64,000 nucleotides of DNA, from assembly GCA_001692895.1 (NCBI GenBank), contig KV748183.1, forward strand, positions 558,001-622,000. The letters run 5' to 3'. This DNA comes from Cenococcum geophilum 1.58. Its lineage: Eukaryota > Ascomycota > Dothideomycetes > Gloniales > Gloniaceae. Shown here piece after piece: positions 3,897 through 40,566 of the stretch; within the stretch, counting starts at the first letter, position 1, and every line of letters begins with the position of its first letter. A model generated the notes under the pieces. That model was given only the letters and a program-made list of their open reading frames with translations, was not told the DNA's origin and made no database searches. Made by a program: the position numbers and the translations under genes.

Positions 3897-3901
3897 AAAA
3901 G

Positions 3902-11691: not shown

Positions 11692-11696
11692 AAAAG

Positions 11697-14330: not shown

Positions 14331-15850
14331 CAACCATCCTTTGTATTAAATTTCTTCCATTTTCCACCCAAACTTTCCACTATTTTCCATCTCACAAATT
14401 TATATACTTTTATATAATAATTCTACTTCTTTTCACTATAAATTCTATTACTTTCTATTATCTTCTACTAGTAGCCCCCCTTTTATATATTACCTATATT
14501 ACAAATAAAAACTATACTACTTTGCTAATATTAATAGGTTGGTAAGAGACAATTCTACTATAAAGCAATTGTCGCTGCCTACGCGGATATATTTTAGGCA
14601 AATAGTTTAATAGGAATAGCTTAATATTAGTCTTCCGCTAAATATTTTAATAAGCTTACTAGCGCAACTATATGCTTTATCGCGGTTGGTATAAGGCATA
14701 GTATCCTAGAGTACCTATCTGGCCACTATAAGACTATTAAGTATGTTGGTAGTAAGGAGGTTTGAAGTAGAACAAATTTACTATATCTTATATCTTACTG
14801 CTAATAAGTATAAAGCAATCTATAGGGAGCCACTTACAACATAGGACGCTACGGCACTATACCGCCGGGTTATAATTAAGTTTTGCATATTTAAAGATAT
14901 AAAGACAAGAGCACAACTCTATAATAATGACAATAATAAACAGTACTTCAATGCCGAACCATGGCGGAATCCATATAACAATATCTTAGATAATTTATTT
15001 AAGGATCTAGATAACGAGAGCACTAAAAGCTTAAAGGCTGCCATTTAAATGCGGTGCGGTGGTGCTAATTTAAATTACTCTACCTTATTAATACAGCTCT
15101 ACTTTTTTAACTTACCTAGGCCTAGCCTAATTAGAGGAAGTGCTTTAAAGGGGAATAACCTAGTACAATATTGGGTTTCTTTAATTCTAAGTTTCTTTAT
15201 ACGGTTATATACTAACTCTAAGTATCTATATAGATAACCGTCTATGAAATTGCGAGTATATAGGGTGGCTAAGAGGAAATATTAGATTTCTACTTAATTA
15301 TAACAGGCTAGAAGAAAGTGCGGGCATAAGTACCTATCCACTCCAAATTTACATAGAATAATTTTAAGAATACCCTAGGTTTACCAGATAATGGAGCTGG
15401 CTGGTATAATAGCGACGCTAGTAAGGATTAGTATGTATATAATAATAAGGCATTTTAGAAGTTTATACGGTTTGTAAAAGGTCATAGTGGGGTTATTTTT
15501 TGGTAAAGCAGCGAGGAGGATTTCCAAAGCATATAGCGTTATATAGCATCACCAAGTCTAAGCCTAAGTATTTTATACTCATACCAGCGCACGTGATTAT
15601 AAAACAATATTTATATTGCTTTAATAGTTAGGCCAGGCCTCTTATACTTATAGTCTTAACTTTTATTAATATAGTAAATTATTAAAGTCTTTAGTATTGT
15701 TAAATAATTAAGCTATCTTTTACTTTTTCTAGCTAGCTATAAATGCTAAAGTATTATATTTACTTAAGCATTTTAATAATTTAAAGGTAATAGAAAAACT
15801 AGTATTTTACTAATATACTTAATCCCTAAATCTAGGATTTTATTTGTCTT
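14331..15850 (+). pseudogene. Decayed ORF(s) of unknown function
   Basis: A pyrimidine-rich, weakly mutated stretch (about 14260-14480) could be an old 5' region. It is followed by a plus-strand frame with few stops at about 14520-15048, then an overlapping open stretch at 15049-15237 and a further readable frame to about 15840. Stops are mostly TAA/TAG, the RIP pattern. I recognise no domain. A degraded transposon gene and a degraded host duplicate are both possible. Confidence 0.3.
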
Positions 15851-15851
15851 A

Positions 15852-15927
15852 TTATCCTAATTGTCCTAGTTGTCCTAGTGGTCCTAGTAGTCCAGGTAGT
15901 CCGGGTGGTCCGGGTAGTCCGGGTGGG
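15852..15927. repeat. 9-bp minisatellite
   Basis: About eight copies of a 9-bp unit (variants of 'agtggtcct' and 'ggtagtccg'). The phase gives a short Gly-Pro-rich or collagen-like translation on both strands. It is much GC-richer than its surroundings. Confidence 0.85.
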
Positions 15928-17780
15928 CTCCTAATAGGCTCCTGATAGGAAACCGAGTGTAAGTGTCTCCTAGAGATCCTAGCAGCCCTAACAGGAGCTA
16001 CTAGGAGCCTGTTAGTACTATTAAGAGGCATGAACAATTTCCTAATGTACTAAATGGATAAAATGGGGGAGGTGTCTTATCTAGTATACTACTAGTACGC
16101 TTAATACGCGGTATAATGTTATATACTGCCGCAGTATCGTCTATAGTTTATAGATTTCCTTAGTTCTATCCCAGAGGCTTTCCTATAGCGCGGCTAGTGG
16201 CCTCTTTAAATGTTTTAGTCCAAAAGACGTCTATAGATATTCTAGTTAAAGTTTACTAATTGGTCTTAACTATTATTAGGTTATATACCCTATTAAATAT
16301 TACGGAATTATTATTATAATATATATCCACAGCCCTGTTATTTAGCTTATTAATAATATTATTACCTAGAGCTTATATAGGTGGCTACTTATTACCTTAC
16401 TCTAATTCGGCCTTATAATTAGTTATATAATACCCTTCTAAGGTTTAATAGCATAATAGTATATTGTCGTCTATATATTATATAAGTGGCCACTTATTAT
16501 ATTGCTTTAGTTTAGCCCTATAATAGGCTATCTAATACTCCTTTAAGCTTTAATGGCGTAAGGGTGTATTATTATTTATCTCTTTAATATTAACGCCCTT
16601 ATATCTACCCTTCTTCCGTTTCTATTATCTTAAATAATATTATTTATAATAGGTTAGACCGCCTATGCTTTTTACTTTAGTCCTATACTTTCTATATTAC
16701 CGCTAAATAAAGCTTATTTATAAATTACCGCATTAAGCTATAATTTGCTATAGTTTAGTTAGAAGGAAGCCAAAAATAATATCCGTATAGAACCGTATAT
16801 TTAAAGTAGTGTTTATAGCTCGTGCTATATTATAAGCCAGTTAAAATAGAAGGAGTATAGTAAGAGCATGGCGATGTCCGTGGATACTAACGCGTTAGAT
16901 AGTATAACCCGTTATATTTTACGCTAATTTACACTAGATCGCGTTACGTTAGACTAGAAGACTTTACTTATTACTAATATTACGCCGCCTCTCTATTATA
17001 CTAAGCATAGGATTCTAAATACCACTATTCCCTACTTAGGATATTAGACTGTTTTTTACAATAGAACGCAATATATAATAGCAGTATGCCGTAAATACGG
17101 TATAGTATAGCTTTATAAGCGCCACAGACCTGTAAAAAGATATATAGCTTATTACTAGCTTAGGCATTACTGCGGAGAGACTTAATACTATTAAGCGGAC
17201 TTTTAAGTAGGTTATTATTAAGGACGGCATCCTATATGTTTTATTTCGCAGATAACTAAATAATTTGCTACGTAAGCAGGCGATCTAGAAAGTTATCTAT
17301 TAGGTAGTAGAATGCGAGAAGGCACTAGCGCTATAGGTATATAAGGCTATATAGAATATACTAGCCCACATATAGTTAAATATATGTAAAAAGATAAAGG
17401 CGCTAAGGCGGCCTAGCATTAACTATATAGTAGATGCGGAAAGGAGGCATACGGCTGCTATAAACTTATAAAGTTTATCCTAGCTTAACTATACGCAGAA
17501 CTACGGCTATAATCTTAAATAACTCGTTATACTACTTTATAGGCGAAAACTAGATAGTACGAACTTAGTCCTAAGTATAGACGTAGCCTTAAGTCTAGTA
17601 TTGCTGTCTAATACGCCTTAAGACCTATATATAGTTAAATATTAGCTACTAGTTAAGATGTTTTTAAAGGCCGGGGTGGATTATAATAAGGGGTGGATAT
17701 AGGCCGCCTATATAGAGACTATACCTATCTAAAACAATAGGGCCTTAAGGGCTGCTTTATTAATAATAATAGATTTAATT
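15928..17780. other. RIP-degraded DNA with a 105-bp tandem pair
   Basis: A tandem duplication of 105 bp (16381-16485 and 16486-16590, recognisable by 'gtggctacttatta' and 'gtggccacttatta') is followed by about 1.1 kb in which plus- and minus-strand frames are both partly open (for example minus 17036-17230). No domain was recognised with confidence. A faint ankyrin-like look at about 17580-17700 is too weak to call. Confidence 0.45.
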
Positions 17781-18300
17781 TACCGTCCGACCCGGTCCCC
17801 CTAATGGGTCCGCGCAAACTAATTCCTATGGTAAAAACTCAATATATATACTGAGAAAAACACATTTTTTGGGTGAACAAAAAACCCCCAAGGGAAACGT
17901 AAGAGGTAATACTTCCAGATAGCATTCGTACTACATCAACGGGGGGAAAAACACCGTCAGGTTACTGCTCAGAGACCCCTAAGGAAGGTGTCTCGAATGC
18001 CTGTCTTGCCCTATCTGCCTTTTAAACCACTTTCCCTATCTGTTATTACCTATATAGAATTATATACCTACCCTTCCCCTACTCCGCCCTGTATACATAC
18101 ACATATACTATTTACAGCTTCCCTACTTACAGTATAATCCAATCTTATTATTATACCTTCTAGTATAATCCACTGCCCTCCTATATAATGCATTTATATC
18201 CAGTCCTGTATAACCTTTTTTTAAAACCAAAACAACAGGACAGTAATTAGTGCTAGGTGTCTTCTCCTAGAGCCCTAACCTAGGTCCTTTGTAACACAAA
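17781..18300. other. Weakly mutated patch starting with a motif shared with 32046
   Basis: From 17781 the sequence is less TpA-rich. It starts with a roughly 48-bp stretch that resembles 32046-32093 in the same orientation (shared core 'gtccga..cgg.tccc'). It then carries homopurine and homopyrimidine runs and a hairpin at 18233-18310 ('tcctttgtaacacaaagga'). It could be the non-coding end of an element or a promoter region. No coding capacity seen. Confidence 0.35.
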
Positions 18301-19930
18301 GGAGGACATATACCGCGTGCGGCAAGTCTAAGCTATTAGGTAATAATAAAGGCGGGTAAATAAGAGGCCTTAAAAGGTAATAGACGAGCAGGTAGTTATA
18401 TAGTAGAGTTTGACATACCTACTTATCCAGGCCTCTACCTTAGTTTTTAAGTAGCTCTCCCTTACTAAGCCTAAGGGCCTAGGGCTTTCTATAAGCAGTT
18501 AACTGCTACTACTAATAATATAGGGAATTTCACCAGTTCTCTCGGGTATCTTATAATAGGTTATAAGCCTAAGTACTAGTCTGCCCCCCAGCAGTCTATA
18601 TAAGAGTCTCCTCCTAAAGTTAGTACGCTTTTATATAGCTTAGGAGCCTTCTATAGCCTCTAGTTTCACGCCTCTTATTATTATTTCCGCTGGTATAGGT
18701 ATAAGCTGCTATTTATAGGGGTCGCAACTCCTATCTTACACGCCTACTAACGTAATCCTATAAGGGCGTTGTAGCTGCATCCTGCAATGTAGAAGCCTTA
18801 GGTACCTTTTACGGTTAAAGCCTAGCCTAAAGCCTCCCCCGCCTAAGTAACTCCTATTTACTCCTTAAGCGTACCTCACTAGCGTACTACCTTAGTGAGC
18901 AGCCGTACTACCCTGGCGAGCAGCCGTACTGCCCTAGCGAGTAGTCCTATCTATTAGTACACCGATATACGCATCTATTCTCTTAAGCCACGTAGTAGTT
19001 TCTCCGGCTAGGACGTAATCCTACCTACCTATTAGGTGTACTAGGGGTTAAAGCCTAGCTAAGGGGTAAGGTCCCTAGAGCTAGCAGTAGCTACTACGCA
19101 CTACGTCCCGTAGGAGGCTAGTAGTAATATAGGGGCGTAACACCCTATACTACTGCCAGTTCCTATTTCGCGTTGCCTATAAGAGTCTCCTTATAATAGG
19201 CCGACTGTGTCTTATAAGAGGAGTTGTAAATACTTAGTCCCACGCCAGACGACCTACTCTGCCCTCTCCTACTAACTAAGCTTATATCCCCCCTCCTTAT
19301 AAGCTAGCCTGTGTCTCTAACTTATTAAGTCCTCGTATAACTAGCCTATGTTTCCTTAGAGCCTCCCCCATATATATACGCAGGTTACGTGCACCACGCC
19401 TATTAAGACCCTTCTGTAAGTCACCTAGTCGAGCGCCATAGAGCCGTTAAAGCTGGCCTATATTTCCGCTGCCTAGAGCTTTGCCCGTGTTTCTACCTCG
19501 ACGAGCTATCTAGTCGCCGTCGCGTCGCTATTACGTCGCTATCGCGTCTCTGTCGTCTAGGTCGCGCGCACTATGCCTATTAAGGCCCTCTTTTAAGTCA
19601 CCTGGGTATCGTATACCAGATAGGCCCTTATAGAGGGGCCTTAATAAGTTCTCTAGGTAGGGCCTTAATAAGTTCTTCGCGGTGGCCTTAGGGCCTTAAC
19701 AAGTTTCATATAATTCTGCGACGCGTTAACCTTAACAAGTTCTTATAAAAAAGAGGTTCCCTACGCCCTCGCCGTGTCCCTACGGTCTCAGAGCTAGTGT
19801 AAGCCCAAGGGTGTCCTATTATACGACTAGGACGCGTCTACGTCGACTAGCTAGGTAATAAGGGTAGTTTCGGGCCTGGCTACAAGCCAGATAGTCGTAT
19901 ATCGGGTAGTTTTCATATCCCAGTTTCCCT
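18301..19930. other. GC-richer decayed region with short tandem repeats
   Basis: This stretch keeps many CpG and CpA dinucleotides compared with the rest. It contains a 21-bp tandem (three copies, about 18897-18959, 'gagcagccgtact') and four copies of a 15-16-bp motif ('ggccttaataagttct') at 19637, 19661, 19692 and 19729. A proline/serine-rich plus-strand frame can be followed in parts, but no family is recognisable. Confidence 0.4.
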
Positions 19931-20175
19931 TAATGGCCCCCCTAGATAGTAGAGCAGGAGCCCTAGGCGGGGGCAGTAGGACTCCTGGTGTTGTTAAGGG
20001 CGATGCTTTATACGATGCTTCGTACGCGTCGCAGGCTCAACACCACAGAACCGCGACGACAGCGCGCTGCACGCGCTGCGACGGCTCCCTACCATCGCCT
20101 CTGCACTTGGCCATCAAAAGAAACAATTTCCTAATGATGTTTCCACCCGCGGCGACGTAAACGCGTACAGTAGGG
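19931..20175. other. Nearly un-mutated GC-rich patch of about 245 bp
   Basis: Base composition jumps to GC-rich with abundant CpG and CpA (for example 'gcgctgcacgcgctgcgacg'), between AT-rich neighbours. An ATG-initiated 75-codon frame (19933-20160) spans it without stops, but it has no recognisable motif and such a frame is expected by chance in GC-rich DNA. It may be a recent insertion or a short unique segment that RIP did not reach. Confidence 0.5.
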
Positions 20176-22600
20176 CTTCGCGGGCGGGCTGCTTTATTAA
20201 GGGCAGTTTATTATAGGGTAGGCCAGGTTATATTTACGGCTATCTATAAAGATGGTATATAGGTATCCGTTATAATTATAATATATTACTAATATTTATC
20301 TAGCCCTATCTTTAGCGTAATACATTTTGCTAGGCGGGCTAGAAGGTATTAATTAATTATAGTTAATCTAATCTACATAGAGATAGTGACTTTAGTTAAG
20401 TTTATCTTGCAGTAAGACCTCCTATTGTACTAGAAAGCCCTAAGATTATTGCCTATATATATAATTTTAGATTATCTAGATATAGTATAGTAAATTGCCT
20501 TTACTATAGGCTCTTCTATTAGGGGCAACTATATAAACATTATATTTATCCTATATTTTGCTAGCTAGTAGCTAGTATAGTAGGACAGGTATTATTCTAA
20601 GGGCCTATAGTATTAGCGACAAGTTTCTTAAGATATAGTAACGGCGTATTAATGCTAGAAATAGCATACCTAATATAAGTAGGAGAGGGCGTTAGGTTAT
20701 ATTGCCTTAGCGGCAGCTATAGCAAGAAAAGGATTAGATCCTATTTAAGGTTATTATAGTTTAATAAAAATAGAGGCGGCCTATACTATATAAAGAGTAA
20801 TTAATAATAGTTACGGTTATTAGTGAGATATTTAGACTATAATCTAACTAGTTAAGTACTTAGGAAACATTTAGTTGTAAGTTTAGATTAGAATAAGGGC
20901 TTTAGAATAGAGTTAATCTAAAGCTCTAATCTAATTCTAAGACGACCATTTAGTTAAATTCTAGTTTAACTTAACTTTAGCTATAAATTTTTGATGTTCT
21001 AAAAAATATGCTAAAAGTTACTAAAAAGTTAGTAACTTACTATATATAGAATCTAAACTAAGGTCTTGGCGTTAGTTTAAATTTAAAGGCTTTAAATTAT
21101 ATACGTCCGTATAACCTATAGAGCTATAAACGCGTATTAAATTGGAAAGGAACGCGTTCTTTCTACTAGACTTTTAGTTTAGATTTAAAAGTAATAAATT
21201 ATAACTAAACAACCCCTTAAAATCTGGATTATAGATTAGTATTAATTAACCGCTAGCCTAAAAGGGATAGAAACTAGGATTACTAGGCTTTATAAATTAG
21301 GCTATCTTTACTATAATACGCTTATCTATTTTAGAGATTATAATTATTAAAAGTCTACCTTATTTAGCTGTAACATATAATGTCGTAATATACCGTATTT
21401 TACCTAGTGCTATAGCAAAATTGTAAATATTAAAGGCCTATAGCTACTACCACTCTTAACTTCTATCTAGTGTCCCTATTTAAGGGTCTCGCTACTAGTA
21501 AAGTTTATAATATCTATCCTTACTACCCTCCTTATATTCCGACGCCACTAATATCCTCTCTATTATTATTATCCTTGTTATTATTACTAGTACCGCCCTA
21601 GCCGTTATTATTAGCGCCCTCTCTATTAGCCTTATTCCACGCTTTAGTATAATTACTAGTGCTACTAATATTTACTACACCTGCAAAGTCAGGGATAGCA
21701 ATATTAAAGTTAATATCTATACTATATAAAATAGGCGTATAATCGGCTATACGCTAACGGTAGATATGCTATATAGTTTTGTTAATGTTAAACGGGGCAA
21801 TAAGTTACTAAAAGTGCTCTTTTTACTTAGGATTCTTAAGGTTAATAAATACCTTATTATCCTTACACCACTTCTTAATTTTATAATACGCGGTATTTAT
21901 AAAGGTCTTATCGCCGGTATAATAATTATAGACTACCTAGGGACTACTAATAATAATAAGGCCCGTTCGTGGTCTAGTAATTATAAAAAGGTTCCTCGCC
22001 GTATCCTAGACAAATTTTAGTAGACTAGCAACTATTATATTATATACTAATAACTCTACCTAGCCACCTTAGATGCTATTAACGGTAAAGACCTTAATCT
22101 TACTAACTACTAGCGCAAATTCCCGCCACTTGCTGCCATCTTACTAGGCGTAATACTATTCTTTAAGCGCATGCAGCGCTGCGGAGTAGATAGTAAGTTA
22201 AACTATATATAGAATGGTAAAGCTAACCTCTAATAGCTTAAATCTAAAGTCTATTAGCGCTATGGCTACCTAGAATACACATTAAGCGTAGACTAGGTTA
22301 TACGTTAATTAGCTAAGCTTATTTACCTATATAGTATTATTAATAGCGAGGAAGGCAATAGGGTGGTTATAGCGCAGCACATCCTTAAAAAAGCTCGCCG
22401 CCAGCTTTAACTGCTCTCGGTTCTTAACTATTAGGCTTATTTAAAGCTGGCTATACGGTAGGACGGCATTTATAAGATATATAATATCTTTAACAAATTA
22501 ATATTATAGCGAGAACTATACTATATCCGCACTAGCCGCAAGGAGACGCGTATAGAGGGAGATGGATTTTTAATAGTAGAACGGATTATTAAAATCGGGA
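20176..22600. other. Decayed DNA at the left of the helicase block
   Basis: Both strands have partly open frames. The clearest is plus 21766-22020, but it lies downstream of (and may be a shadow of) the minus-strand helicase remnant. Contains the TIR element at 20863-21216. No confident gene call. Confidence 0.35.
20863..21216. mobile_element. PIF/Harbinger-like MITE, 354 bp
   Basis: Flanked by TTA (20860-20862 and 21217-21219), the 3-bp target site typical of PIF/Harbinger. Its ends are imperfect inverted repeats sharing 'TTTAGTT.TAA.TTTA'. The interior resembles the larger element at 34395-41312: both contain 'gggctttag' or 'aggctttag' next to 'agttaatct', and a 'tcttggcgt' segment. No transposase; non-autonomous and heavily RIP-mutated. 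Confidence 0.6.
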
Positions 22601-25420
22601 CTAAGGATTGGTTTTGGTTAGTATATATTACTAAAGAAAACCTAAGGTATAGGGTCGCTAGCCTAGATTTATAGACCTCCCTAGATTAAATATAGTCCGC
22701 TTTAGGCAAACCTAGTAAAACTACTTAGCTTAGACGCCTTCCTAGCCTTGTTATAGAAAACTATATATATAGCGCTAATAGAATATATATAAGTCTATAA
22801 GACCATATTAGGTATTATAAGAATAATATTAGCCTTCTTAGCTAGGTTTGCGATAACTATATTAGCCGTAAGTATTAATCCTATTTTATTATCTTGCGTT
22901 ATATTATTACTAAGCGTAAATTAGTGCAAGTATTAGCGGAATTTAGTATATTTAGTTATATTAGGGTTTATAATAGAATGTAGGTTTCCGTTACTATCTA
23001 AAACACCTATAAGGCGTAATAACTACTAACCTTTAGATAAATCTATAACCTATAACTACTTATTAAAGCTAGGAGTATTACTAGCCTTAAACATACGGTA
23101 GAGTAGGAATGCTATATTTAGTATAGACGCGTCTTTATTAATTATAGTATAGTTATCCTATTCCTTAAAATACTTAGAATAAGTATTAATACCTGCCGCT
23201 ATTCGCTATATAACGGCATCTTACTTATAGACCTTAGTTTCCGTTAAGCGTATATAGCGGCGAAGGATAATAGGAAATTTAGCGGGATGGCCTTGCGTAA
23301 TTAGTACCTTATAGTCCTCTATAAGTATATTATTAATTATCTTAGCTAGTATATTTAGTTAGCAATTAAGCGGCGATAGGACCTAAATTTTAGTAGGATC
23401 CTACTAGGGTAACCTAAGTTAATACTGGTATTGTACTAAGATAGTTAGGAAGGTTAATTTCCTAATACTACTAGGGCCTTATATTAATAAAATACCGCCT
23501 ATTATATATTTAAGCGCAGTATAGGCACCTATTTACTCTTTGTTAAGTAGCGGTAAGATAGCCTTAGGGGCATTATTAACCGAGTTCTTTTTATACTTAG
23601 TAATATTATAGTTAAAGTAATTAATACGCGGGAGATCTATAAAGTTGTTAAATAGCGTAATTTAGCGCTTAATATAGAAACTGTCGCCTTTTTACTATAG
23701 GTGGCGTAGAGTATTAATCTTTTAGAAGATTCCAACCTTAGGGACACACTTAATTATAAGATATTTAATACCCTATACTGTAATTAGGGCCTTACTTAGG
23801 TTACTAACTATTATAAAGTTGTTACTGCTTAGGATATACTCTAGAGTAAATATAGGGTTTAATATAAACTTATAACCCACCTATAATTAAAAGATAAAAG
23901 TATAGTAGTTATAGCCGGAGCTAAAGGGAGTGGTATTAATAATAACTCCTTTCTAGCTAACCTAGCTATTTACGTCTTTACCTAGGAATAAGATATTAAT
24001 AATAGAGTTAGTGTAAAGGGCAAGACTATTAACCATCTAGATGGCAGCGTAGTAGATTTAGTCTATGCTACCTAAAAAGGTAATAAGATAAATAATAGTG
24101 GGTACCTAAGGGTTCTAATTAACGGCCTTAAGGCTTGTAACTACGGTATAGAACTAGACCGTAAAATACTTAAGAACGCTATTGAACTAATACCTCGCGG
24201 GAATTTTATATAATAGTTAGTCCTTTACTAAAAGCTATATACTAAGCTAGACATTTATATTATGGTTCTTCTACTAGCAACCTAAAGGATTATTAACGCT
24301 CTGCTATTATAGGCTTACGTTTAGGCTCGCGATATAACTATTAAGCTATCTAGTGCCTAGTATAAAAAAGTAAATAACGACTATAGGACTATTTAATAGT
24401 ATATCCTAAGCTTTATAGATTTATAGCGTAAATAGGCCGAAGTCCCTATTAATAAAGAAGTACTTATTAAGTAATATGCGCATACCTAGTATAAGTTTAT
24501 TAGAGGCGATAATAAACCTAATATAGTAAAGTTATAGGGTTATAGTATCTTACGGGAGAATGTAAGTAAGATATTTAAGCGTGGTTGGATATAATAGTTG
24601 TTAAGTAACTAAAAAATCAGTATTAGTAGTATTAACCTTAACGTCGCTAGTAATATTAGCATCCGTAAATTGGATAGACGCCGTCTTATATAAATAATAA
24701 GTAGGTATTCTACTAGTCTTATAAGACACCTAGAACGTAATGCTATATACTATAATATACTCTTTAATAATTTGCATAACAAACTAAACTATAAGGTGGT
24801 TATTGTTTAGAAGCTAGATTATATCTAAAGGTTTAGCCATTATAGAATCGCTGTCCTCTATATAGGTGTCTAGATTATCTATTAAGCCATTCGCTACTAA
24901 ATAGAAGCCGGCTATATTAAGAGGTTTAGGTAATAAAGAGGTGGCAGCTATACTTAAAGCGGTAGTACCTAGTATATCTACCTTACCTAGAGCGGTTGCG
25001 GCGTCTATCGCCTGAATTAAAGTAGGTCCACTTATACAATTATTAATATTATGCCCTATAACTCCGTAGTTCTTATATACCTAACTATAAAAGATAGTTT
25101 AATAGTCTAGGGAGCTATAGTTTAGGTAAGTCCGCTTTTTCTTACCTAATAGCTAGGGACAGTCTTACTTTTTATAGCCTATAGCACTACATTAGTTGCA
25201 TATTACACTAGAATAGTTACTCTTAAGATAACCGGCTTCCCTATAATTATTATATATAGGGTTAAGGCAGTTAGCTTTAAGATAACTAGCCTTACTGTAG
25301 CCGTAACAAAGTTAAGAAGCTTTCTTAAGAGGATAATTAGCGTATATATAGCTAGTAGATAAACAGAGATAGTATTTTAGAGCATTATTAGCCAAAAAAT
25401 ATAGACTGCTAAGCTTTAAA
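22600..25420 (-). pseudogene. Decayed CCHC zinc-knuckle / SF1-type helicase gene
   Basis: On the minus strand, four zinc-knuckle patterns (C-x2-C-x4-H-x4-C, some Cys/His changed to Tyr by G-to-A transitions) occur between about 25310 and 25030. Further downstream one frame (about 23640 to 23220) reads an SF1-type N-terminal core. A Q-motif-like 'LLNKE.IGAYTALK' is followed by 'GGILLI.GPSSIRKLTF', a degraded Walker A of the GPPGTGKT type at about 23455-23478, then motif-Ia-like 'VLSPLN', then 'GHPAKFPI'. A segment near 22900-22800 resembles the stretch leading to motif II ('GLILTANIVIANL'). SF1 Upf1/Dna2-like helicases unwind RNA or DNA; zinc knuckles bind nucleic acid. Interrupted many times, mostly by TAA/TAG. 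Plus-strand frames through this region are shadows. Family membership is inferred from motifs only. Confidence 0.55.
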
Positions 25421-27450
25421 AGAAGAGGCTTATTAAGTATAGGGCCCTTACTATTACCTTATAAGACACTAAAGCCTATAATTACTACAGTTAAGGCAAT
25501 CTTAAAAACTATAATACCCTTAGCAAACTTTTTATAGTTACGAATGTAGTTAATATCGCGAGTTATAAAATAATTAGTAGGTAGGTCTATTTTGGTGGCA
25601 GGCTATATTAAGCGGTGGTTTATATAAACGTATTAGTAAATATAAATTCTCTATTATATAGCTAAGGCTAAAGATAAGGCAGCTAACTTACTATATTATA
25701 AGGCTCTATAGCTTAAATAGATCTGCAAAGGTACTAGCCGTAAAGGTAGATACTAGTAGGGTAGAAGTAAGGGTAGATAGTTAGTAAAGTTAGGTTAACT
25801 AGTAAAGGTAAGGAAATAAGGCGTACCCTAATAAAATTATATAAGTAAGGCCTTGGCGGTAAAGTATATAGTTATATACTCCGTAGGTTAAACGCGTATA
25901 AGGGTAAATCTATAGTAACAAAACTAACTAATAAAGGAAGATATAGTATAATGTAAGTTACGGGGACTATCTTACCTAGCCTATCTCTTAATATAGGCCA
26001 GGCGATAGTCCAGTACTATTAAGCTCTTATAGTTTATAATATAAGTATATAGACATATAGAAGGGTAAGGGAAAAGAGAAGTATATAGTAAAGTAAAAGC
26101 ACTTTACTATAGGCAGGCTAATTATGTTATAGGTAAATAGAAACTCAAATACTATAATCCGTTAAAAATATCACTAATAAGTATAGCTTACTACTACTAG
26201 AAAGTACAAGTCTTTTCCTCCCTTAATTAGTAAGAGAAAAGGCATTATTAACTAAATAATCTCTTACTAGAGTACTAGGTGGGGAGCGGGATATTATAAA
26301 ACTATATATAGTTTTAAACAGATCTAAAATAAAGATATTAAATTTAAGAGACTCTAATATAATAAATACTATAGTAGAATACTAACCTCTTATATAACAC
26401 TAAATAGATAAATAGTAAGATAAGTTAACGTTGCTAAGCGGCTAGATACTAGTATATACAATATATCTACTATCCTAAAATACCCTAAAATGCTATAAAA
26501 TACCGCAAAATGCTATTAATTATATAAACTTATAATATAAGATACAAAACCTCCTACTACCTTTTGTGGTAGATATACGTTTAAATAAGCACTAGATGTT
26601 TATATATAGACGTAAATCCTACACACTAGATAATTATTATTCTAGATAAACTTATTTAGTAGGCCCTTAAGTGCTATATAGTATAATAATAACACTAGCG
26701 ATTACGAAGTAAGTATAATACGTTACTGTTTACTAGAAGTACTACCTATTATATACTAAGCACTTTACAGTAATAGAGTCTGTATATATAAATATAGGCC
26801 AGCCCTCTAACTCTAGTGGCGCGTATATCTACTAACTTTATATAATAATAAGAAATATAGTAACGCCTATAATAAGTGCAATACGTTGCTATCTACTAAA
26901 AATACTACCTGTTATATAATAAACACTTCACAGTAATAGAGCCCGCACGTATAGATATAGGCTAGCCCTCTAACTTTAGTGGCGCGTATATATACTAACT
27001 CTATACAATAATAAGAAATATAGTAACGCCTATAACCTCCTATATTTTACTATACCGTAATAACTAGTTACCCCTTTATAGGTATTTAATAAATCGCTTA
27101 TATTAAAAACTATAAAAGTTTAATAGTACTAAACCGCCACCTAGCCCTAAATAGGCTAGGTAGGGTAGTCCCTATAAGTTATATAATTATACCCTTATTT
27201 AACTGTATAGTACTAAGTCTAGCCGTATTTACCCTAACTAGTAGTAGTAAACTATAGCTAATTTTACCTCTATACGGGCACATACGGGCAATTATAAGAT
27301 TTACCTCTTTACCTCTTCTTAATTAACTTTACTTACTCTACCTTTTATCTCTCCTATAACTAACCTCTAACTATATCTAATACTAGAGTTATAGTAGTAT
27401 AGCATTAGCTAGCTACCATATAAAGCCCTTCTACTTAATATATGCTGTAA
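25421..27450. promoter_or_regulatory. Spacer between two divergent helicase remnants
   Basis: About 2 kb separating the minus-strand CCHC/SF1 remnant from the plus-strand SNF2 remnant. In a divergent pair this would hold both promoters. It contains the 163-bp tandem duplication and short repeats around 'aaaatgct' (26480-26515). No coding frame supported. The promoter role is inference from gene orientation. Confidence 0.35.
26711..27036. repeat. 163-bp tandem duplication
   Basis: Two adjacent copies (26711-26873 and 26874-27036), recognisable by 'aatacgtt.ct', 'tctagtggcgcgtat' / 'tttagtggcgcgtat' and 'tagtaacgcctataa' at the same spacing. Differences are mainly transitions. Confidence 0.85.
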
Positions 27451-27499
27451 TATTATACGTACCTAACTAAACAAGCGACTTAATAATAATGTAAATATG

Positions 27500-30400
27500 G
27501 GTAAAGCCGGACGTATAGTATAAGGCAAACTTAAAGCTAACTAAAGATATAGATATTACCTAAGGCTTCGGAATAAGTATTAAAAACTATAATAGACTAA
27601 AAGAGACGGTTAAAGATATCGCAATTAAAGTTAAGCCTAAGCACGTAATATATTACGGCAACTTTATAATAATAAAAGAAGGGCATATTAAGGAGTTTTA
27701 TAAGCAACTCTTATAATTTACTAATACTCTACCGGATTAGAAACTATAGGTAATCCTAAAAATTATAGAAAGTGCTCGTTCTAATCGCGTAAGGAGGGTA
27801 CTAAGTACCTCTAAGAGTAGGCACGCTCTGTGTAAATATATATTACCCCTAAAGACTAAAGCATAAGATAAAATAACGCTACCTTAGCTACTGCATGCAA
27901 TACAGCCCATAGATATTACCACAACCCCACTATATAGTATCTCTTTGCCTTAGCTAACAACCCTAGCGGTAAGCAATATAATTAATATAGGAGATATTAA
28001 GATTAAAATCTAATCTATAGGCTTAACGGGTAGGTTAATAGTTAGGGTAATCTAAGTCTTATATCTAATAAGCGGAAACCTATATATAGCTCTAGGTAAG
28101 CTATAAAAGGAACTACAAGCCTATACAGAGCTTAACATTAATAGTCCGCCTAAAAAGAATATTTATATATCGCTATAGAGATATAAAAACCTCGCAATAC
28201 GGTTAGAAGGCACACTTATTATAACTTTTAGCAAAATAGCAAGAAATAGCATAAAGGAGGTTATACTTATAGCATTACTCTTACCTTCTAGCTTAAACTC
28301 CTAAGTTACTACTGCTAATAATATACCGCTAGCTATTAAACCTAAGGCGCTTAGACGTAACAGATATAGTATAAAAGATAGTTAGTAAGTCCTAATACTA
28401 TATAAGGCTAGCGGTAAGAATAAACTAGGAGAAGGTAAGAAGCGGAGTTAATTAGAATTAGCAGTATATAGCTCTAAGGAAAATAGTAAGGGCGAGCCTA
28501 TTAGATATAAGAAATTAAATAACGGTAAAACTAAATTAGGTAGATATAATAAGTAGCCTTAACTAAGATTAGTAATAAGTGCTCTAGCGGAGGATAATAA
28601 AAGCGAGCCGGCCGCGCCTAGGAAGTTAAATAGTTATAAGGCCAACCTAAATAGAAGTAGGAAACGCCCTTAAGCAGAATTAGCGGTAAACACCCTTATA
28701 GAAAATAGTAATAATAAGCCGGTTATACGTAGAAGGTAATTAGTAAAGGGAAAACGTAACCTATTTACCTATAAGCCCATATTAGCGAGTAACAGCAGTA
28801 CTAAAGAAATTGCCGCAGATAACCGCAAATTGCCGTAACCTATTACTAAACCTAAAGGTATACACTAGCCTATTAATATAATAGATAACCCTACTACCGC
28901 ATCGCTAACTGTTAATACCCCTTAAGATATTACCGTAGAGGACAGCAAATTGCCGTAACGTACCAGTAGATACAATAATTAGTTCTTATATTACACTAAC
29001 TCTAAGGATATAAAGAGTAAAGATAAAGATAAAGATTTAGTTAATAATAACAACTAAGATAAGGATTTAGTTAATAATAATAACTAAGATAAGAATTTAG
29101 TTAATAATAACGACTAAGATATAGACGCAGAGGAAGAGCCTAACTAGTAATCTTTCTTAGCCCAGCTCTATAAGGCTAGGAAGGATAACCTAAATAGCGT
29201 ACTAGCGTATATAACGGAGGCGGATCTTCTACTTACTCTAGAGTATTTCCTACTTATTTTATTAAAAGTACTTTCTAAAACTACCCTAATCGAACTCCCT
29301 AATTGGGGCCTTGTATTAGGCTTTAAATTTAGCCTATACTAAGTAGTATATATAGCTTAGGCATTTAAGCAAAAGAGGACAATTAAAGGAGGCAGTATCT
29401 ATGCAGACAAACCTAGCGCGGGCAAGACTATATAAATAATTACTTAATAGCTAATAAACTACTTTTATTATTAGAACGTAATAGACATTTAAAAGGCCTA
29501 AGCCGCTAGGGATATAACCCGCCACTTACCTAAGATGTATTTACCAGATATAAAATACCTATAGGTAGTAAAGCAGCCAATTATATGCTACTACGAAGAC
29601 AACTTTAAGAAACTATACCCTATAGACCTATAGTAAGGCTACTTAGTCGTCCTTACGCCAACTTTATGCCTGCTAGGATTCCTAAAGGACGCAAGTATAA
29701 TGTTATAAGATGGCGCGATTATAAAGCGCCCTAACCCGCCCCAGATTATAATTCTTACCCCTAGCTACAATAAAGTTAAGATATTTAGTAAACTAAAAAA
29801 GGACAAATAGCCGCAAATCTGTAAGGCTCTTAAGTGGACTAATAAGAAATAATAGGAGAATAATAATAACACATATCTGGTTAGTAAGACTCTCCTATTA
29901 TACCTATAGGGTAAGCTAAGTTTAAGAATAATTATTACCCTACCCCTAATATAACGGAACTATTAGCGCTAAGACACTTAACCTAATTCCTTCTAATTAC
30001 TACGCAAAATTATATTACCACATAACTAATATACGGGTTTATTACTATATAAACTAGTATATAGAAACACCTAAAGGGCAAAACCCTTAAATTATATTAG
30101 AAATTAAAGAGTGCAATATAGGTTAGGCGTATCCTCTAGGACAAATACCACCTAGACACAACCAGTAAAGTCTTAATATCGTTTATTAAGGATATAGTTA
30201 AGAAGTACCGCATCGCGTATAATTACAGCCCTACTATATAGGGTGCGTCTAGCACACCTAATAACGGGAACCTAATATAACTAATGCGGTTCATTATAGC
30301 AGGATTAAAGAGGCCTAAGTAGGAAGAAGTAGATAAGCTAAAGGGAACGGAGTTTAAAGTACTACTTAAGCTTAAAGAAGAAAATATCCAGCTAAAGAAA

Positions 30401-31520
30401 AAGGAATTTAACCGTCACTATAAGGATACGAAAACCAACCCATCTAAAGTAATAGTAGATAAGAAATTTGGCGAACTGGCTGCATTTTTCCGTATAGTTA
30501 TTCTAATATTTTAGATACGTAGAGGGGAGTTAATACTCTAGTTTAACTAGCAAAAGCTTATCCTAAAGAATAGCTGTCTTAAATTAGTTATATTATAGGC
30601 CAACCCTAATAACACTAAGGCGGCTATAATTACAGCTATAGAGGACTAAGTAAGGATAGAGTAGAGGCGCTAATATAAGGAACTTCTGGCTATATAGGAA
30701 GAAGATAGTAGCGATCTAAATACTAAACCTAAGATACTAAAACTCACCTAAGCTAAGTTATACACTAATGTGAAAATAGTAGTAAGTATAGCCCAGGTTA
30801 TCTAATACTAGGACTAGTATACCCCTATTATAATTAAGTCTAATAAGTCTAATAAGTCTAATAACAAACGCCTAAAAACTTAAAGTTGTACACTTAAGGA
30901 CCTAATTATCGCTAAGTAGACTACTAACCCACTTAGTAAGGAGTTTACTAATATACTTAACCGCTATTTTTAACAGAATGCAAAGTTCTTTTAAGCTGAA
31001 AAAATCTATAATTACGTTTATGTCAAAAAACAAACGGATAGTTTAGTGTATAAGATTATTATTACCACTCGCTCACTTCTTATACTAGCTTATTAGTTTA
31101 ATAGGCTATATAATGAATATAGTAAAGATAAGGTGCTTCGCTATATAGCCAGTATATCTAATATTAAAAAGCCCGAGGCTAGGTAAACCTTTAACACTAA
31201 TAACTCTAAGTAGATCCTACTTTGCACCTTTATATTAATTAGGCTGTCTATTAACCTATAGCGCGTAAATTACACTATTATAGTTAAGCTAAGCCATAAG
31301 CTCTTAGAGGTAAAGTAACTATTTGCTTAGATAGATTAATAAGGACAGACTAAGCCTGTCTGCTATAGTACTATTATAGCTAATCGGAAGTTAAGTATTA
31401 AGTAAAGGATATTAAAGTTAACTAAATTTACGTTGTTACTACACAAGTTAGTATATAAGGAGAAGGCTAATTTAAGCTTAAAAGTAGGCTAAGGTAAAAA
31501 GGAAGACACTAAGACTATCT
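27500..31520 (+). pseudogene. Decayed SNF2-family ATPase/helicase gene
   Basis: Motif I of SNF2 ATPases reads 'GGSIYADKPSAGKT' at about 29389-29429, followed by a motif-Ia-like 'VLTPTL' near 29650. A motif-III-like 'SSTPNNGNLI' lies at about 30250-30275. The helicase-C end is clear: 'NSK.ILLCTF', 'LSINL.RVN' and the motif VI block ending 'GQTKPV' at about 31200-31365. The N-terminal 1.7 kb (27500-29200) is charged, repetitive and unrecognised. SNF2 proteins use ATP to translocate on DNA and remodel chromatin or repair DNA. Stops are mostly TAA/TAG, so RIP killed the gene, which implies that it existed in at least two copies. It diverges from the CCHC/SF1 remnant. It could be element cargo or a duplicated host gene. 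Confidence 0.7.
29014..29120. repeat. About 36-bp tandem repeat, three copies, within the SNF2 N-terminal region
   Basis: Three near-identical copies of a unit containing 'gatttagttaataataa' and 'aactaagataa'. They encode an acidic/asparagine-rich repeat in the SNF2 frame. A shorter 10-bp repeat, 'agtctaataa', occurs three times at about 30838-30865. Confidence 0.75.
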
Positions 31521-32045
31521 AATGCTAGTAATAATTGTAAGAGTATAATAGAACTATAGATAGTTCCAAACACTATATATAGCCGCCATATAGTAAAACC
31601 TGTTATAATTATATAGTGGCGTATACGTAGGCCAAGGGACGTGTCTTCTAGTAACTTATAGGTAGTAGCGTAGCGTATATAGTAAACTTAGTCAACTAAA
31701 ATATTTTTAGTATTATTATTTCTAAGAGAGTATTAAGTTATAGCTTGCAGCACTTTTATTATTAAGGCAGCGTTTAGCCGCAAATTATAGCATTATTATT
31801 AGTGGTATAGTATATAGCCGCAAAATGCAACTAAATACGGCTAAATACCGAAATTGCTTAATTAGCATAAACCTAATTTAAGATACTAGTAAATTTTTTT
31901 ATAATACCGCCCCGCCCCCTATACTTACTAATATTAATAAAATATATATAAAATATAAAATATATTATTTTTATTAATAATATTAAATTTATAAAATTAT
32001 ACTTTTTTATATACTTAGTAATATTATTATTATTATTCATTACTT
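31521..32045. other. AT-rich tail of the helicase block
   Basis: Contains degenerate 'gccgcaaa' and 'taccgaaa' motifs, then 'ctagtaaattttttt' at about 31884-31899. The same 15-mer recurs at about 33863. After it comes an AT-only stretch (31925-32035) that resembles 32860-32995. No gene. Confidence 0.5.
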
Positions 32046-32850
32046 AACGTCCGATTCGGATCCCTATTGGGCCCACGCGGACTACTCCTTATATACATGT
32101 GGGGAGAAAACTCTATTTAAGAAAACCCCGTAATCCATCTCCCCGCCTTTTAGGACTCGCCTATAAGGCGCCTACAAGGCGCCTACGAGTCACCTATAGT
32201 GCTCTACTACCTTACTTTTTAACCTCTTTAGGAACCACTGCTGCCGTAACAAGCCTACGAACGCGCTAGTATCGCAAACTTTACTCTACTACTATAGAGT
32301 CATCAGGGGGCGCCCGTTGCTCGCCCCCCCGCCCTCTATTACCATTTCCTTTATAACCCGGAACTGGTTTAGTACATTTTAGCTAATAAGCCACTAGGTA
32401 ACCGCCTTAAGGCCTTTTTATATTAAGAGCAGTGTATTATAGTTCTCTGTGCTAGCTACTAAGAGTATTACTTCTTAGTTAGTGCGTAAGGGGCATAACA
32501 GTATTACGTGTTTTGGTGTCTGTCTTAGCCAGCCACATTCGCATCTCGGGCTACCTACTAGGACACCCACCTAGTAGAGCCAGTCTTTTAGTCCTATTAT
32601 TCCTATTCTTAAAAGTGTTGCCATTATATTTTCTGCCTTCGTTAGGCCTTCTCGGAGCCCTAGAGTGTTTACCCCCTATGGCGTTAACCATGCTACGGCT
32701 TGGGTTCCTCTTGCCTTAGTTAGCCTCTGTACCTTTAACTCCCATGCGCCTCTCTAGCGTTGGTCCAACCAGTATTGTATTGCGGTAGATGGTTTCCTGG
32801 CGTTCTTTTATGCTCTACTTTGGCTCCTTTCTCTCTCTTACTGTTATCTT
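32046..32850. other. GC-richer patch between two AT-rich repeats
   Basis: Starts with the motif shared with 17781. It contains tandem 'aaggcgcctac' units (about 32166-32190) and a G/C-rich run near 32308-32332. The 68-codon plus-strand open stretch at 32513-32719 has no recognisable domain. Less RIP-mutated than its flanks. Nature unknown; it may be the non-coding part of an element. Confidence 0.35.
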
Positions 32851-32859
32851 TGCTGGTAG

Positions 32860-33000
32860 TAATATTAATAAAGCGTATATAAAATATTAAAATTATAAAA
32901 ATTATACATTTATATATGCTTANTAATATTAATAAAGNGTATATAAAATATTAAAATTATAAAAATTATACNTTTATATATGCTTAGTAATCTTATAGTT
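32860..33000. repeat. AT-rich tandem, unit about 63 bp, two copies, with N bases
   Basis: Two copies of a unit containing 'aataaag.gtatataaaa' and 'ttatatatgctta'. It is related to 31925-32035, so similar AT-rich repeats bracket 32046-32850. Ambiguous bases at 32923, 32938, 32972 and 33002 suggest mixed or uncertain reads. Confidence 0.7.
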
Positions 33001-33015
33001 ANCACTTAGTAGTTA

Positions 33016-33840
33016 AATACTAATACTTAATTATAAATGCCGCATTTAGCAGCTAAATACTAAGGCCACTGCTAGTTATACACCCCCTAAACGATACGCA
33101 TATACCCCCCACCTCATTTAGTTTAGACGCTTCCTCATTAAGTTAGGTGCTTCCTCATTAAGTTAGAATATCACGTGCGTTTGACTTGTTTGCGCCTGCA
33201 TCGCGAAAATTAAAGTGCGAGCCTATGGTGTAGCCAGTATTTCGCTCAAATGCTGAGGGCTCTCTACAAGTAGATCTGTCGACGCGATTGGTAATTATAG
33301 AGCCGGTTGTAGGGTTGGTTGACCGACCACCGCGACGCTCTACAATTGCAGGCCCTTGGATGCGAAGTAGAGGTGTTGATTTGGGTCCCACCGGGCGCGA
33401 AGCAGGTAGCAGTACCTGAATCAGTTTGCGCGACGCCTCATAAAATACTGCGCAATCTAATTAATCGGCTCAGTCGCGATCCAAATTTAGACTCCACTAC
33501 TTATACTATAACTAAAATCAATACTTAATCGTGATGTTGCAGTTATAAAACTTACATGACGCGTACTTTGATTTTCGCGATGCAGGCGCAAACAAGTCAA
33601 ACGCACGTGATATTCTAACTTAATGAGGAAGCACCTAACTTAACGAGGAAGCGTCTAAACTAAATAAGGTAGGGGGTGTATGCGTATCGTTTAGGGGGTG
33701 TATAACTAGCAGTGGCCAATACTAACACTTGATTTTAAATGCCGTATTTAGCGGCTAAATGCTAACACTTGATTCTAAATGCCGTATTTAGCAGCTAAAT
33801 GCTAGGAAATGCTAGAAATGCTAAAAAATGCTAAAATGGC
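33016..33840. repeat. 40-bp satellite interrupted by a TIR element
   Basis: Units of 40 bp start at 33016, 33056 (interrupted), 33758 and 33798 (degenerating), with the remainder of the interrupted unit at 33718. Each contains a short palindrome 'tttagcagctaaa' or a variant. The right end degrades into 'gaaatgcta' repeats. Confidence 0.75.
33064..33717. mobile_element. Non-autonomous long-TIR DNA transposon, 654 bp, 8-bp target duplication
   Basis: The arms are inverted repeats of about 155 bp (33064-33219 and 33562-33717), starting GGCCACTGCTAGTTATACAC. An 8-bp direct repeat AATACTAA flanks it (33056-33063 and 33718-33725). Removing the element and one copy restores a continuous 40-bp satellite unit, which supports a true insertion. 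The interior is GC-balanced and little affected by RIP. Overlapping open stretches on both strands (33158-33391 minus, 33319-33528 plus) show no transposase motif. An 8-bp duplication fits hAT, P or Merlin; the long arms recall Mutator or foldback elements. Class undecided. Confidence 0.8.
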
Positions 33841-33871
33841 AGAAAAGTAAAATTAAATGCTAGTAAATTTT

Positions 33872-34391
33872 TTTCTAACAAAGTCTAAGGTATAGGACTT
33901 CTATTTTATAAAACTTGTATTTATCTATATCTAATTATAGACTAGCTCCGTATAAGGCTTATAAAATAAGGTCAACGTATTTTTAGTATTTAGTTAGGTT
34001 ATTACTATATATTAAAATATCGTTAATATAAGCGGTATAGAAGATATCTAGGTAGGGACGTAGGGTGTTATTTATATAATATTTAAACAAGCTTAGGGCA
34101 TTTTATTAGGTAAAACCTAAGTAGATAATTATATAGCCGTAAGGTATAGGCGACCCTAGGGTAACCTAGGGGTAACTCGCCCGTAAGTTATATGCTCTAC
34201 ACATACCTAGGGAAAACCCTTCTTACCTTACATACAGACTCCTCCTTTTCCCTTAAGGATTTGTCTCTGTCTATACAATATACCTATTGTTCTATCATTA
34301 GACTCCCTATCTATATCCTTACCTTATATATTTATAAGGCCAAATAGCGTTATTAAGTATTTAAATAATCTATACTAAGTACGAAATATAG
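33872..34391 (-). pseudogene. Gypsy-3 RT, downstream part
   Basis: Minus-strand reading shows the RT palm including 'ILIYSNNLTK', preceded by the 'TLRPYLDIF' type region. It ends abruptly at about 33872 against the 'ctagtaaattttttt' / satellite junction. An unrelated segment at about 34150-34330 lies within it. Confidence 0.75.
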
Positions 34392-34414: not shown

Positions 34415-34607
34415 TATTACGGAACCCCACCGTAGAGGCCTCCATAGGAGAGCCCCGTGCTCTCGCGTACACCTCACGTACAGCTTATATTAGCTACGCG
34501 TAGGTATATTACCTCCTTACGCCCTCAACCCTTACGATTGATTGCGTAACGTCTTATAGACTCCTTAAATACATACACTCTATAGCCACTGCCCTCGTTC
34601 CATAACA
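34415..34607 (+). repeat. 5' LTR of Gypsy-2
   Basis: 193 bp. The inverted termini are variants of TGTTATGGAAC ... GTTCCATAACA (first G mutated to A in this copy). Confidence 0.92.
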
Positions 34608-36300
34608 TTACGTTACGCCTTTTTACCACTAACGCTTAGCCTATAACCAATTCTACGTCTCTATAATACTATAGGCACTGCTAAAAGCAGCGTATCTACG
34701 AACTACCCCACCCTATACCCCCAAGAAACCCATAATAGTAAGACGATATTCCTTACTAGCTACTATATTAAACCTAAAGAACAATCTAATACCTATACTT
34801 AACCTACAACGCCAATTAATCCTAGGAGAATTTGATTTATTAGCCCTAACCCCTAAGGAGATAGATACTGATAATATCTTATCTTTTATTAACTATATAA
34901 CTACGGACAAGCAAATAAAAGGACTACTACCTATTAAAATTAAAATATAAGACGCCAAGACGTTTGCAAAAATAGTAGTATAAGACCCTAATAAATACTA
35001 CCGCCTTCTATAAAACTACTACCTAAAGCTTATATAAGCTAAGATGCGTACTACTTAAGATTGCGATATTATCCAAGACCTATAAGCTTATAAAGCGCTC
35101 GCTAATAATATACGTTAAGAAACCAAAGACGACCTCCGTATATCTAAACGCGATATCTAACAGTTAAAGAAGAATAAAATTGCACTAATTACTACGGTCA
35201 CTAAAAAAGAAGGCACAATTAAATACCTATAATCTTAGCTTAATAAGCACATTTGTAACAACGCTAAATACCTCTTTACTATATATAACGCCACCTAAGT
35301 CTCTACGCCCCCGGCAACTTTACCTACTTAATACTTAATAGAGGGTTAGCGCTAAGCAGCTTTACCTAATAGGAACCCCTACTAAAGCAGCGATAATAAA
35401 AGCTATAATAATCGGACCTAAACTGCTACTATAGGATTTAATATACGTTACCCTAATCCCCTAGTCTTCTAAGGAGACCGTAAGGAATACAGCCACTAAA
35501 AGATATAAATCCGTAAGAAACTAACTTAAAGCGCCTACCTTTTTCCTACGGAAGACACTAAGATTGGCTATATTATTGGGTAAATAAAGGGTATACTATT
35601 TAATAGACTCTTCGCCTAATAGGAGACTAGTGGCCCCTAAAAGTGGTAGTCTTACTAAAAAGTTCTTAATAATCTCAACCTAATATACCGCGACTACGAC
35701 CTACTGGCCACCAACTAAGCTAAACTATGTACCCTAAAGATAAGCCCTACTAAATCATTTAACAAGTTTTATGTTAAATTTTAGGAATATACCGGAGCCC
35801 TTACCTAAGACAATACTAAAGACTAGAAGGATCTCCTTAAAAAAGTTACTTATTGCCTTAGTTACGCAGCCGCTAGCCATAACTATAACAATATTTATAA
35901 AATGGTAGCAGCCCTACGGAAGATTAAATAACGACTAAATTAGATTGCTACTACTAACCCTTACTTAAAAACCTCTCTATAGAAGCCCTCCAGGCCTACT
36001 AAACCTATATATACTAAGCCACTAACGCCTACTACCTTAAGTACCACTAGAGCTAACATTGACCTCTCTATACTAACCTTTCCGCAAAAACTCCTAGACG
36101 GAGAGCGCGAGCTACTTTAGAAATTAGGACGTTGCTATAAATGCTATTAAGAAGGCTATTATTATAATAACCTAAACTACCTAATAGCTAGGTTTAGTAC
36201 CCGCCACCTAATACCTAACCTAATGCCCCAAATACTAAATACGTCGCTACGCGCCACTACTATATAAGATAAAGACGTAGTAATAATAGTAAAATCGGAT
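34608..36300 (+). pseudogene. Gypsy-2 gag remnant
   Basis: A long plus-strand frame with RIP-type interruptions. A CCHC zinc-knuckle pattern starts at about 36133 (C-x2-C, then the mutated H and C positions), preceded by a Pro/Thr-rich linker at about 35980-36060. Nucleocapsid-type end of gag. Confidence 0.75.
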
Positions 36301-40552: not shown

Positions 40553-40563
40553 AGGAGGGGGGG
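40553..40563 (+). promoter_or_regulatory. Polypurine tract of Gypsy-2
   Basis: AGGAGGGGGGG, just 5' of the 3' LTR. Confidence 0.8.
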
Positions 40564-40566
40564 TAG

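What the first reader, a model, noticed from the sequence alone, without database searches (positions are those of the whole stretch)
20300..31900. Divergent pair of decayed helicase genes: CCHC-knuckle SF1 type and SNF2 type
Seen in sequence: an SNF2 motif I and helicase-C end on the plus strand (29389-31365). On the minus strand, four CCHC knuckles (25310-25030) and an SF1-like Walker A context (about 23455-23640). Known: both families are ATP-driven nucleic-acid translocases, and RIP only hits DNA present in more than one copy. Inference: this ~11 kb unit was duplicated as a block and may be the core or cargo of a large mobile or subtelomeric element that has not been described. It carries no retroelement or ordinary transposase signature that I can see.
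Basis: partly seen in the sequence, partly recalled or inferred. Interest (0 to 1): 0.75.

Follow-up and report, generated by a model that had tools for sequence, protein, structure and literature searches.

The report
Giant fungal transposon carrying two helicases
The decayed helicase pair is the inner part of a roughly 20,000-base jumping DNA element that spread through a fungus-like genome and was then mutated beyond use, apparently by the host's repeat-silencing defence; transposons carrying a helicase are known, but this pairing did not turn up in the paper searches made.

Summary
The minus strand has six CCHC knuckles (25374-25036) and UPF1-like SF1 motifs (23478-21993); the plus strand has an SNF2 ATPase (motif I 29388, motif VI 31343-31360). 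This copy gives no Pfam hit, but profiles from sister copies match intact SF1 genes (clearly) and SNF2 genes (modestly) of the same genome above shuffled controls. Its right end (33880) carries a terminal repeat matched 631 times genome-wide. Among the 100 exact ends listed, 29 neighbouring pairs face outward and 1 the other way; two long pairs span 19.8 kb, and 16 pairs are 0.5-2.6 kb, probably non-autonomous derivatives. 73 of 100 ends are followed outward by TA, and partners agree in 26 of 29 pairs, suggesting TA target duplication. Twelve copies differ almost only by transitions (ts/tv 69): nearly identical before RIP-like mutation. Copies are mostly not near contig ends. The left ~5.8 kb, where a transposase would be expected, lies outside the window and could not be read, so the superfamily is unknown and the helicases' roles are inferred. 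New variant of a known kind: helicase-carrying TIR transposons.

The parts
16049..33880 (.). Portion of the ~20-kb transposon present in the window (about 13.9 kb not counting three later insertions). The left ~5.8 kb is missing here: an unrelated repeat (11691-16048) abuts at 16048. A left terminal repeat lies at C8:530603, about 27 kb left of the window (partner by position only).
   Evidence: Left junction shared by 25 of 40 scored places (831 candidates), right edge by many; 11 sister copies continue left of the junction; terminal repeats paired at 19.8 kb in C11 and C13.
17764..20185 (.). Later insertion of 2.4 kb into the element, flanked by a perfect 15-bp duplication (17749-17763 = 20186-20200)
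   Evidence: Absent in the sister copies that span the site; flank duplication.
21340..25850 (-). Decayed CDS of about 1500 aa: CCHC knuckle array followed by a UPF1-like SF1 helicase core (ends approximate)
   Evidence: Stop-codon profile; the 3 indels among 10 copies between 21340 and 26640 are all multiples of 3; frame matched at 21 loci.
25036..25374 (-). Six tandem CCHC zinc knuckles
23452..23478 (-). Walker A (motif I) of the SF1 helicase, decayed; motifs II, V and VI at 22755, 22089, 21993
26710..27035 (.). 163-bp unit present twice in the spacer between the two divergent genes
   Evidence: one of 10 aligned copies lacks a unit (L026).
27160..31400 (+). Decayed CDS, about 1330 aa aligned: basic, low-complexity N-terminal half, then SNF2 ATPase (frameshift at about 29909-29928 in this copy; ends approximate)
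29388..29429 (+). SNF2 motif I
31343..31360 (+). SNF2 motif VI
32030..32856 (.). Later insertion into the element's right part
   Evidence: Skipped by most of the listed copies, present with the element in C10:951666.
33064..33717 (.). Later insertion with 156-bp inverted repeats and an 8-bp flank duplication
33718..33880 (+). Right terminal region: subterminal repeats of an AAATGCTA-type motif, ending in the terminal inverted repeat 33857-33880
   Evidence: 40 scored places (of 227 candidates) at 88% identity or more; terminal repeat 305 forward + 326 reverse matches with up to 3 mismatches, backward control 0/1.

Best explanation
A large DNA transposon, about 19.8 kb, with terminal inverted repeats (TIRs) and a preference for TA target sites. 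It carries at least two large divergently transcribed genes: a CCHC-knuckle UPF1-like SF1 helicase and an SNF2-type ATPase. Shown: repetition, TIRs in outward-facing pairs, concordant TA flanks, short pairs sharing the TIR, and near-identity of copies before RIP-like mutation. Inferred: a transposase, probably encoded in the unread left ~5.8 kb (or acting in trans), cuts at the TIRs and inserts at TA. The SNF2 ATPase would open chromatin at donor and target sites or move the transposase on DNA. The knuckle-bearing SF1 helicase would unwind or clear nucleic acid (RNA:DNA hybrids, replication or repair intermediates) so that a 20-kb element can be excised and repaired. RIP then inactivated the copies: all 21 SF1 loci listed carry many stops.
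For: TIR pattern 631 matches vs 1 for the backward control. Of the first 100 listed exact ends, 29 neighbouring outward pairs within 70 kb vs 1 in the opposite arrangement; TA flank concordant in 26 of 29 pairs, permutation p 8e-5. 16 pairs of 0.5-2.6 kb, and five ~230-300 bp pieces with an inverted copy of 63 bases of the end. 12 copies: ts 39184, tv 568 over 66 comparisons. Divergent order in 12 of 21 SF1 loci (9 within 2 kb, 3 farther), 0 in another order, 9 without an SNF2 place among the 30 listed. Helicase identity.
Against: No transposase was seen. DDE_1 and DDE_3 lists (best 150 of 713 and of 406 candidates), held against the 29 pairs and 25 left junctions, give two DDE_1 hits only: C14:1424839 inside a 28-kb copy, read as a nested pogo element, and C3:5351929, 6.5 kb outside one left junction, ending about 0.1 kb beyond the expected left end. 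A KDZ search gave nothing, but its controls rang nowhere. Left-end letters and left flanks were not read, so the target duplication rests on counts. The window's own right flank is AA, not TA. The Walker A columns show G/S and V/I where four intact SF1 genes of this genome read PPGT, so the SF1 protein is not a textbook member. Variable C/T columns stand before A in 834 of 1798 cases, not nearly always. Two fold predictions were useless (pLDDT 31 and 33).
Confidence: 0.75

Rival explanations
1. Hitchhiker: the 20-kb unit has no transposase of its own. Its ends belong to a small (about 2 kb) TA-inserting transposon that supplied transposase in trans and captured a host helicase pair.
For: Ten of the 29 listed TIR pairs are 1.8-2.2 kb apart, the size of Tc1/mariner-type elements (general knowledge); 631 TIR matches far exceed the 21-40 long-element places listed, though those lists are capped.
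Against: No DDE_1 or DDE_3 hit falls in the 17 short pairs known, among the hits listed (both lists capped at 150). About 5.8 kb of the long element remains unread and could hold a transposase.
Confidence: 0.25
2. Segmental or subtelomeric duplication of a host helicase cluster, later hit by RIP, like the Rad5/SNF2-Rad6 repeat cluster X3X3R8 reported from Stagonospora nodorum.
For: Precedent of RIP-degraded duplicated helicase genes (PMC3017866, passages seen).
Against: The right end is fixed and flanks diverge straight after it in the 10 aligned; 9 of 11 distinct right flanks begin TA; listed copies lie on 27 contigs, mostly internal.
Confidence: 0.05
3. Remnant of a large eukaryotic DNA virus or Maverick-like element.
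For: Large size and two helicases.
Against: No capsid, polymerase or integrase family was reported in the frames scanned, but decay makes this a weak test and only some frames were scanned; TA flanks are unlike the 6-bp duplications of Mavericks (recalled).
Confidence: 0.03

Closest known systems
AcademH and KolobokH (helicase-carrying DNA transposons)
   Same: DNA transposons found in fungi that carry an accessory helicase (PMC10799480, PMC9587614, PMC10045372: passages seen)
   Different: KolobokH carries a RecQ helicase and AcademH makes 9-10 bp duplications (those papers); here UPF1-like SF1 plus SNF2 and TA-flanked ends; no RecQ-like domain was reported in the frames scanned
Inton / Enton (transposons with an SNF2 helicase, cited to Kapitonov et al.)
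   Same: Transposon-encoded SNF2 helicase, one sentence seen in PMC3627910
   Different: No description of their ends, size or transposase was available, so membership cannot be judged; no SF1 partner is mentioned in that sentence
Tc1/mariner superfamily
   Same: TA target preference with concordant flanks, and TIRs
   Different: About ten times larger, two helicases; no DDE_1 or DDE_3 domain assigned to it by the capped searches
Starship elements
   Same: Giant fungal mobile elements with cargo (recalled)
   Different: Starships have a tyrosine-recombinase captain and no long TIR (recalled); this element has TIRs

Membership tests
SF1 UPF1-like helicase (AAA_11/AAA_12) | Ordered motifs I, Ia, II, III, V, VI of the UPF1 type | tested here: met
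   Motif columns across 12 copies; hhalign 62.4 vs at most 19.3 in shuffles; AAA_12 in 2 of 12 copies. Against: the window copy alone gives no hit and the Walker A columns (G/S, V/I) differ from the PPGT of four intact genes.
SNF2 ATPase | Motif I, DE.H motif II, and motif VI followed by GQ | tested here: met
   hhalign 37.2 vs at most 25.8 (modest); Helicase_C in 1 of 6 pieces. PF00176 itself was not hit at the family's listed places.
TIR DNA transposon | Inverted repeats at both ends | tested here: met
   (left ends known by pattern match, position and strand only).
TIR DNA transposon | Target-site duplication | tested here: inconclusive
Tc1/mariner | DDE_1 or DDE_3 transposase inside the element | tested here: inconclusive
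   Among the best 150 hits of each family only C14:1424839 lies in a pair and C3:5351929 beside an expected left end; copies are decayed and the lists capped.
KolobokH | TTAA target duplication (recalled) | tested here: not met
   0 of 11 distinct right flanks begin TTAA; 9 begin TA, 2 AA.
AcademH | Helicase plus Academ transposase, 9-10 bp duplication | not testable with these tools
   No transposase region could be read and the duplication length was not read.
KDZ | KDZ transposase (PF18758) | tested here: inconclusive
   0 hits, but controls rang nowhere.
Helitron | Rep-helicase of the Pif1 type, no TIR | tested here: not met
   TIRs present; motifs Ia, II and V are of UPF1 rather than Pif1 type, though the Walker A columns would also suit Pif1 (comparison with Pif1 recalled).
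Starship | DUF3435 tyrosine-recombinase captain at one end (recalled) | not tested
   Left end not readable.

The most novel reading that the evidence does not exclude
A new superfamily of giant TA-targeting cut-and-paste transposons that encode their own two-helicase machinery, an SNF2 remodeller and a six-knuckle UPF1-like SF1 helicase, as part of the transposition or anti-silencing apparatus, with swarms of short derivatives driven by it.
Probability: 0.3. Interest if true: 0.65.

Novelty: new variant of a known kind. Interest (0 to 1): 0.5.

Why it matters
If the left end holds a transposase, this is a transposon family that carries both a chromatin-remodeller-type ATPase and an RNA/DNA helicase. 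That would give a natural system to ask why some DNA transposons encode helicases, and how a 20-kb element moves through chromatin and past RNA-based silencing. It also shows how RIP can hide an element class from profile searches: this copy gives no Pfam hit.

Tried and rejected
Pfam scan of the window copy, X at stops: nothing. The 16049-17763 region in two frames of three copies: nothing convincing (DUF1615 at E 0.18 ignored), so a third gene there is possible but unnamed. PDB profile searches: only AIR2, a knuckle protein (E 2.2), and a chance ribosomal protein (E 0.69). Rfam on the window: nothing. Fold predictions of the SF1 and SNF2 cores: pLDDT 33 and 31, not used; no fold search was run. 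KDZ, DDE_1 and DDE_3 searches: no transposase that I can assign to the element. Host identity: not resolved; one literature search on a guess led nowhere. Papers: (at least 3 of 6 terms) returned 0; some searches gave the relatives named here; the AcademH paper itself is not held. An early reading of Walker A as the GPPGTGK type was dropped.

Full report
What is there. The window lies at G000:C8:558001-622000 in a 177-Mb, 162-contig genome. Most of it is AT-rich with a strong RIP-like dinucleotide signature, so the host is presumably a filamentous ascomycete (inference). The helicase observation is right: SNF2 motifs on the plus strand at 29388-31360 and SF1 motifs on the minus strand at 23478-21993. 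The knuckle array is longer than stated: six CCHC units between 25374 and 25036. At 20 of the 24 Cys/His columns at least one of 12 copies still shows the residue; the same permissive pattern fits once more in 2233 positions.

Is it more than chance? The window copy alone gives no Pfam family, and genome searches with PF00176 and PF13087 list nothing at this family's known places. Sister copies do better: AAA_12 in 2 of 12 (best E 0.0021), Helicase_C in 1 of 6 pieces (0.0077). Profile-profile comparison of the 12-copy minus frame with 8 intact SF1 genes of the same genome scores 62.4 against at most 19.3 in ten column shuffles and 17.3 reversed; against intact SNF2 genes it scores 21.4, no better than its controls (at most 22.7). 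The plus frame scores 37.2 against SNF2 genes (controls at most 25.8) and 26.3 against SF1 genes (controls at most 20.8; the match is the Walker A shared by both). One intact relative, L046, of which only part is held, matches the SF1 C-terminal half at E 9e-10 in an eight-sequence BLASTP comparison. Both frames are single long frames in sister copies; the window's SNF2 frame is broken once near 29.9 kb. Between 21340 and 26640 the only indels among 10 copies are 3, 18 and 3 bases, whereas 20845-21339 has 1, 12, 1, 39 and 20: few events, but as expected if the CDS ends near 21340.

How big is the unit? Of 40 scored places (831 candidates), 25 share a left junction at window 16049, and the 11 sister copies read there run on beyond it for the 250 bases fetched, so the window copy is interrupted by another repeat. 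On the right, copies end together near 33880 once three later insertions are discounted. The end sequence, used as a pattern, matches 305 times forward and 326 times reverse with up to 3 mismatches, against 0 and 1 for the backward control. Among the first 100 listed exact ends, 29 neighbouring pairs within 70 kb face outward and 1 the other way; ends with mismatches are not in that list, so some pairs may have unseen ends between them. Two long pairs span 19,821 and 19,848 bases (C13, C11); nine are longer, 21.6 to 46.5 kb, probably from nested insertions or missed ends; one is 10.4 kb; 17 are under 7 kb, of which 16 are 0.5-2.6 kb and one 6.8 kb. Five ~230-300 bp pieces consist of the right end and an inverted copy of 63 bases of it (query positions 99-161 of 163).

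Target site. In 11 distinct right flanks, 9 start TA and 2 AA, the window copy being one of the AA cases. Of the first 100 exact ends 73 are followed by TA. Partner ends agree in 26 of 29 pairs (19 both TA, 7 both not; permutation p 8e-5), and in 16 of the 17 short pairs (p 0.0012), as a duplicated target would give. Two of the three discordant pairs are long, C11 among them. Left flanks were not read.

Age and fate. Twelve copies are on average 89% identical, with 39184 transitions and 568 transversions over 66 comparisons. Variable C/T columns, both strands, stand before A in 834 of 1798 cases, before T in 498, G in 324 and C in 137; many CpA sites may already be saturated. So copies were nearly identical before mutation: a burst of spread, then RIP (inference). 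Listed SF1 and SNF2 places fall on 27 contigs; of 21 SF1 loci, 9 have the SNF2 match within 2 kb in the divergent order, 3 farther on the expected side, 9 had none among the 30 SNF2 places listed, and none had another order. Both lists are capped, so copy numbers are lower bounds.

Mechanism. Shown: a TIR-bounded, multi-copy, recently mobile unit with two large divergent helicase genes and short pairs with the same ends. Inferred: a transposase in the unread left part or in trans; SNF2 for chromatin or transposase remodelling; the knuckle SF1 helicase for nucleic-acid unwinding during excision, repair or escape from RNA-based silencing. Nothing here tests these roles. Capped DDE_1 and DDE_3 searches put one hit inside a listed pair (C14:1424839, read as nested) and one just beyond an expected left end (C3:5351929).

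Comparison. DNA transposons with helicases are known: KolobokH with RecQ (PMC9587614), AcademH (PMC10045372, PMC10799480), and SNF2 in Inton/Enton (PMC3627910, one sentence); for all of these I saw passages only. A RIP-degraded SNF2/Rad5 gene-cluster repeat is reported in S. nodorum (PMC3017866, passages). I found no paper with a UPF1-like plus SNF2 pair in a transposon, in an open-licence library only and judged from listings and the passages named. TTAA flanks (Kolobok) are not seen; several other membership tests stay open for want of the left end.

Noticed in passing
window 46425-50370: GC-rich island without RIP signature holding an NLR-like gene: PigL_N/MLKL_N-like N-terminus, NPHP3_N/NACHT, then about 10 similar WD40 repeat units of 127 bp.
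   Followed up: partly
window 17764-20185: 2.4-kb insertion with a perfect 15-bp flank duplication and a TAA-rich edge; looks like a LINE/SINE-type insertion.
   Followed up: partly
window 33064-33717: Element with 156-bp inverted repeats and an 8-bp flank duplication (hAT-like size), inserted in the transposon's right end.
   Followed up: partly
window 3899-11675, 34417-40760, 51301-57595, 57662-63596: Four pairs of direct repeats 5.8-7.4 kb apart, probably LTR retrotransposons.
   Followed up: no
window 1464-2505: 81-bp tandem repeats that keep a 203-aa open frame (1492-2103) inside an otherwise stop-riddled region; no Pfam match.
   Followed up: partly
G000 C75, C71, C36, C100, C72:229322, C93: Another set of decayed SNF2 hits, six of them with the same 202-aa open-frame length, at places other than this element's listed copies: possibly a second SNF2-bearing repeat family.
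   Followed up: no
L046 (G000:C18:2139468-2140058): An unmutated SF1 helicase gene fragment closest to the element's SF1 protein among 8 intact SF1 genes compared; possible host relative or domesticated copy.
   Followed up: partly
window 31883-31906: A degenerate copy of the terminal-repeat sequence (3 mismatches) just after the SNF2 gene, also present in L037 and L038.
   Followed up: no
G000:C3:5351929: A DDE_1 transposase hit ends about 0.1 kb beyond the expected left end of one long copy (left junction C3:5358430); could be chance or a neighbouring insertion.
   Followed up: no
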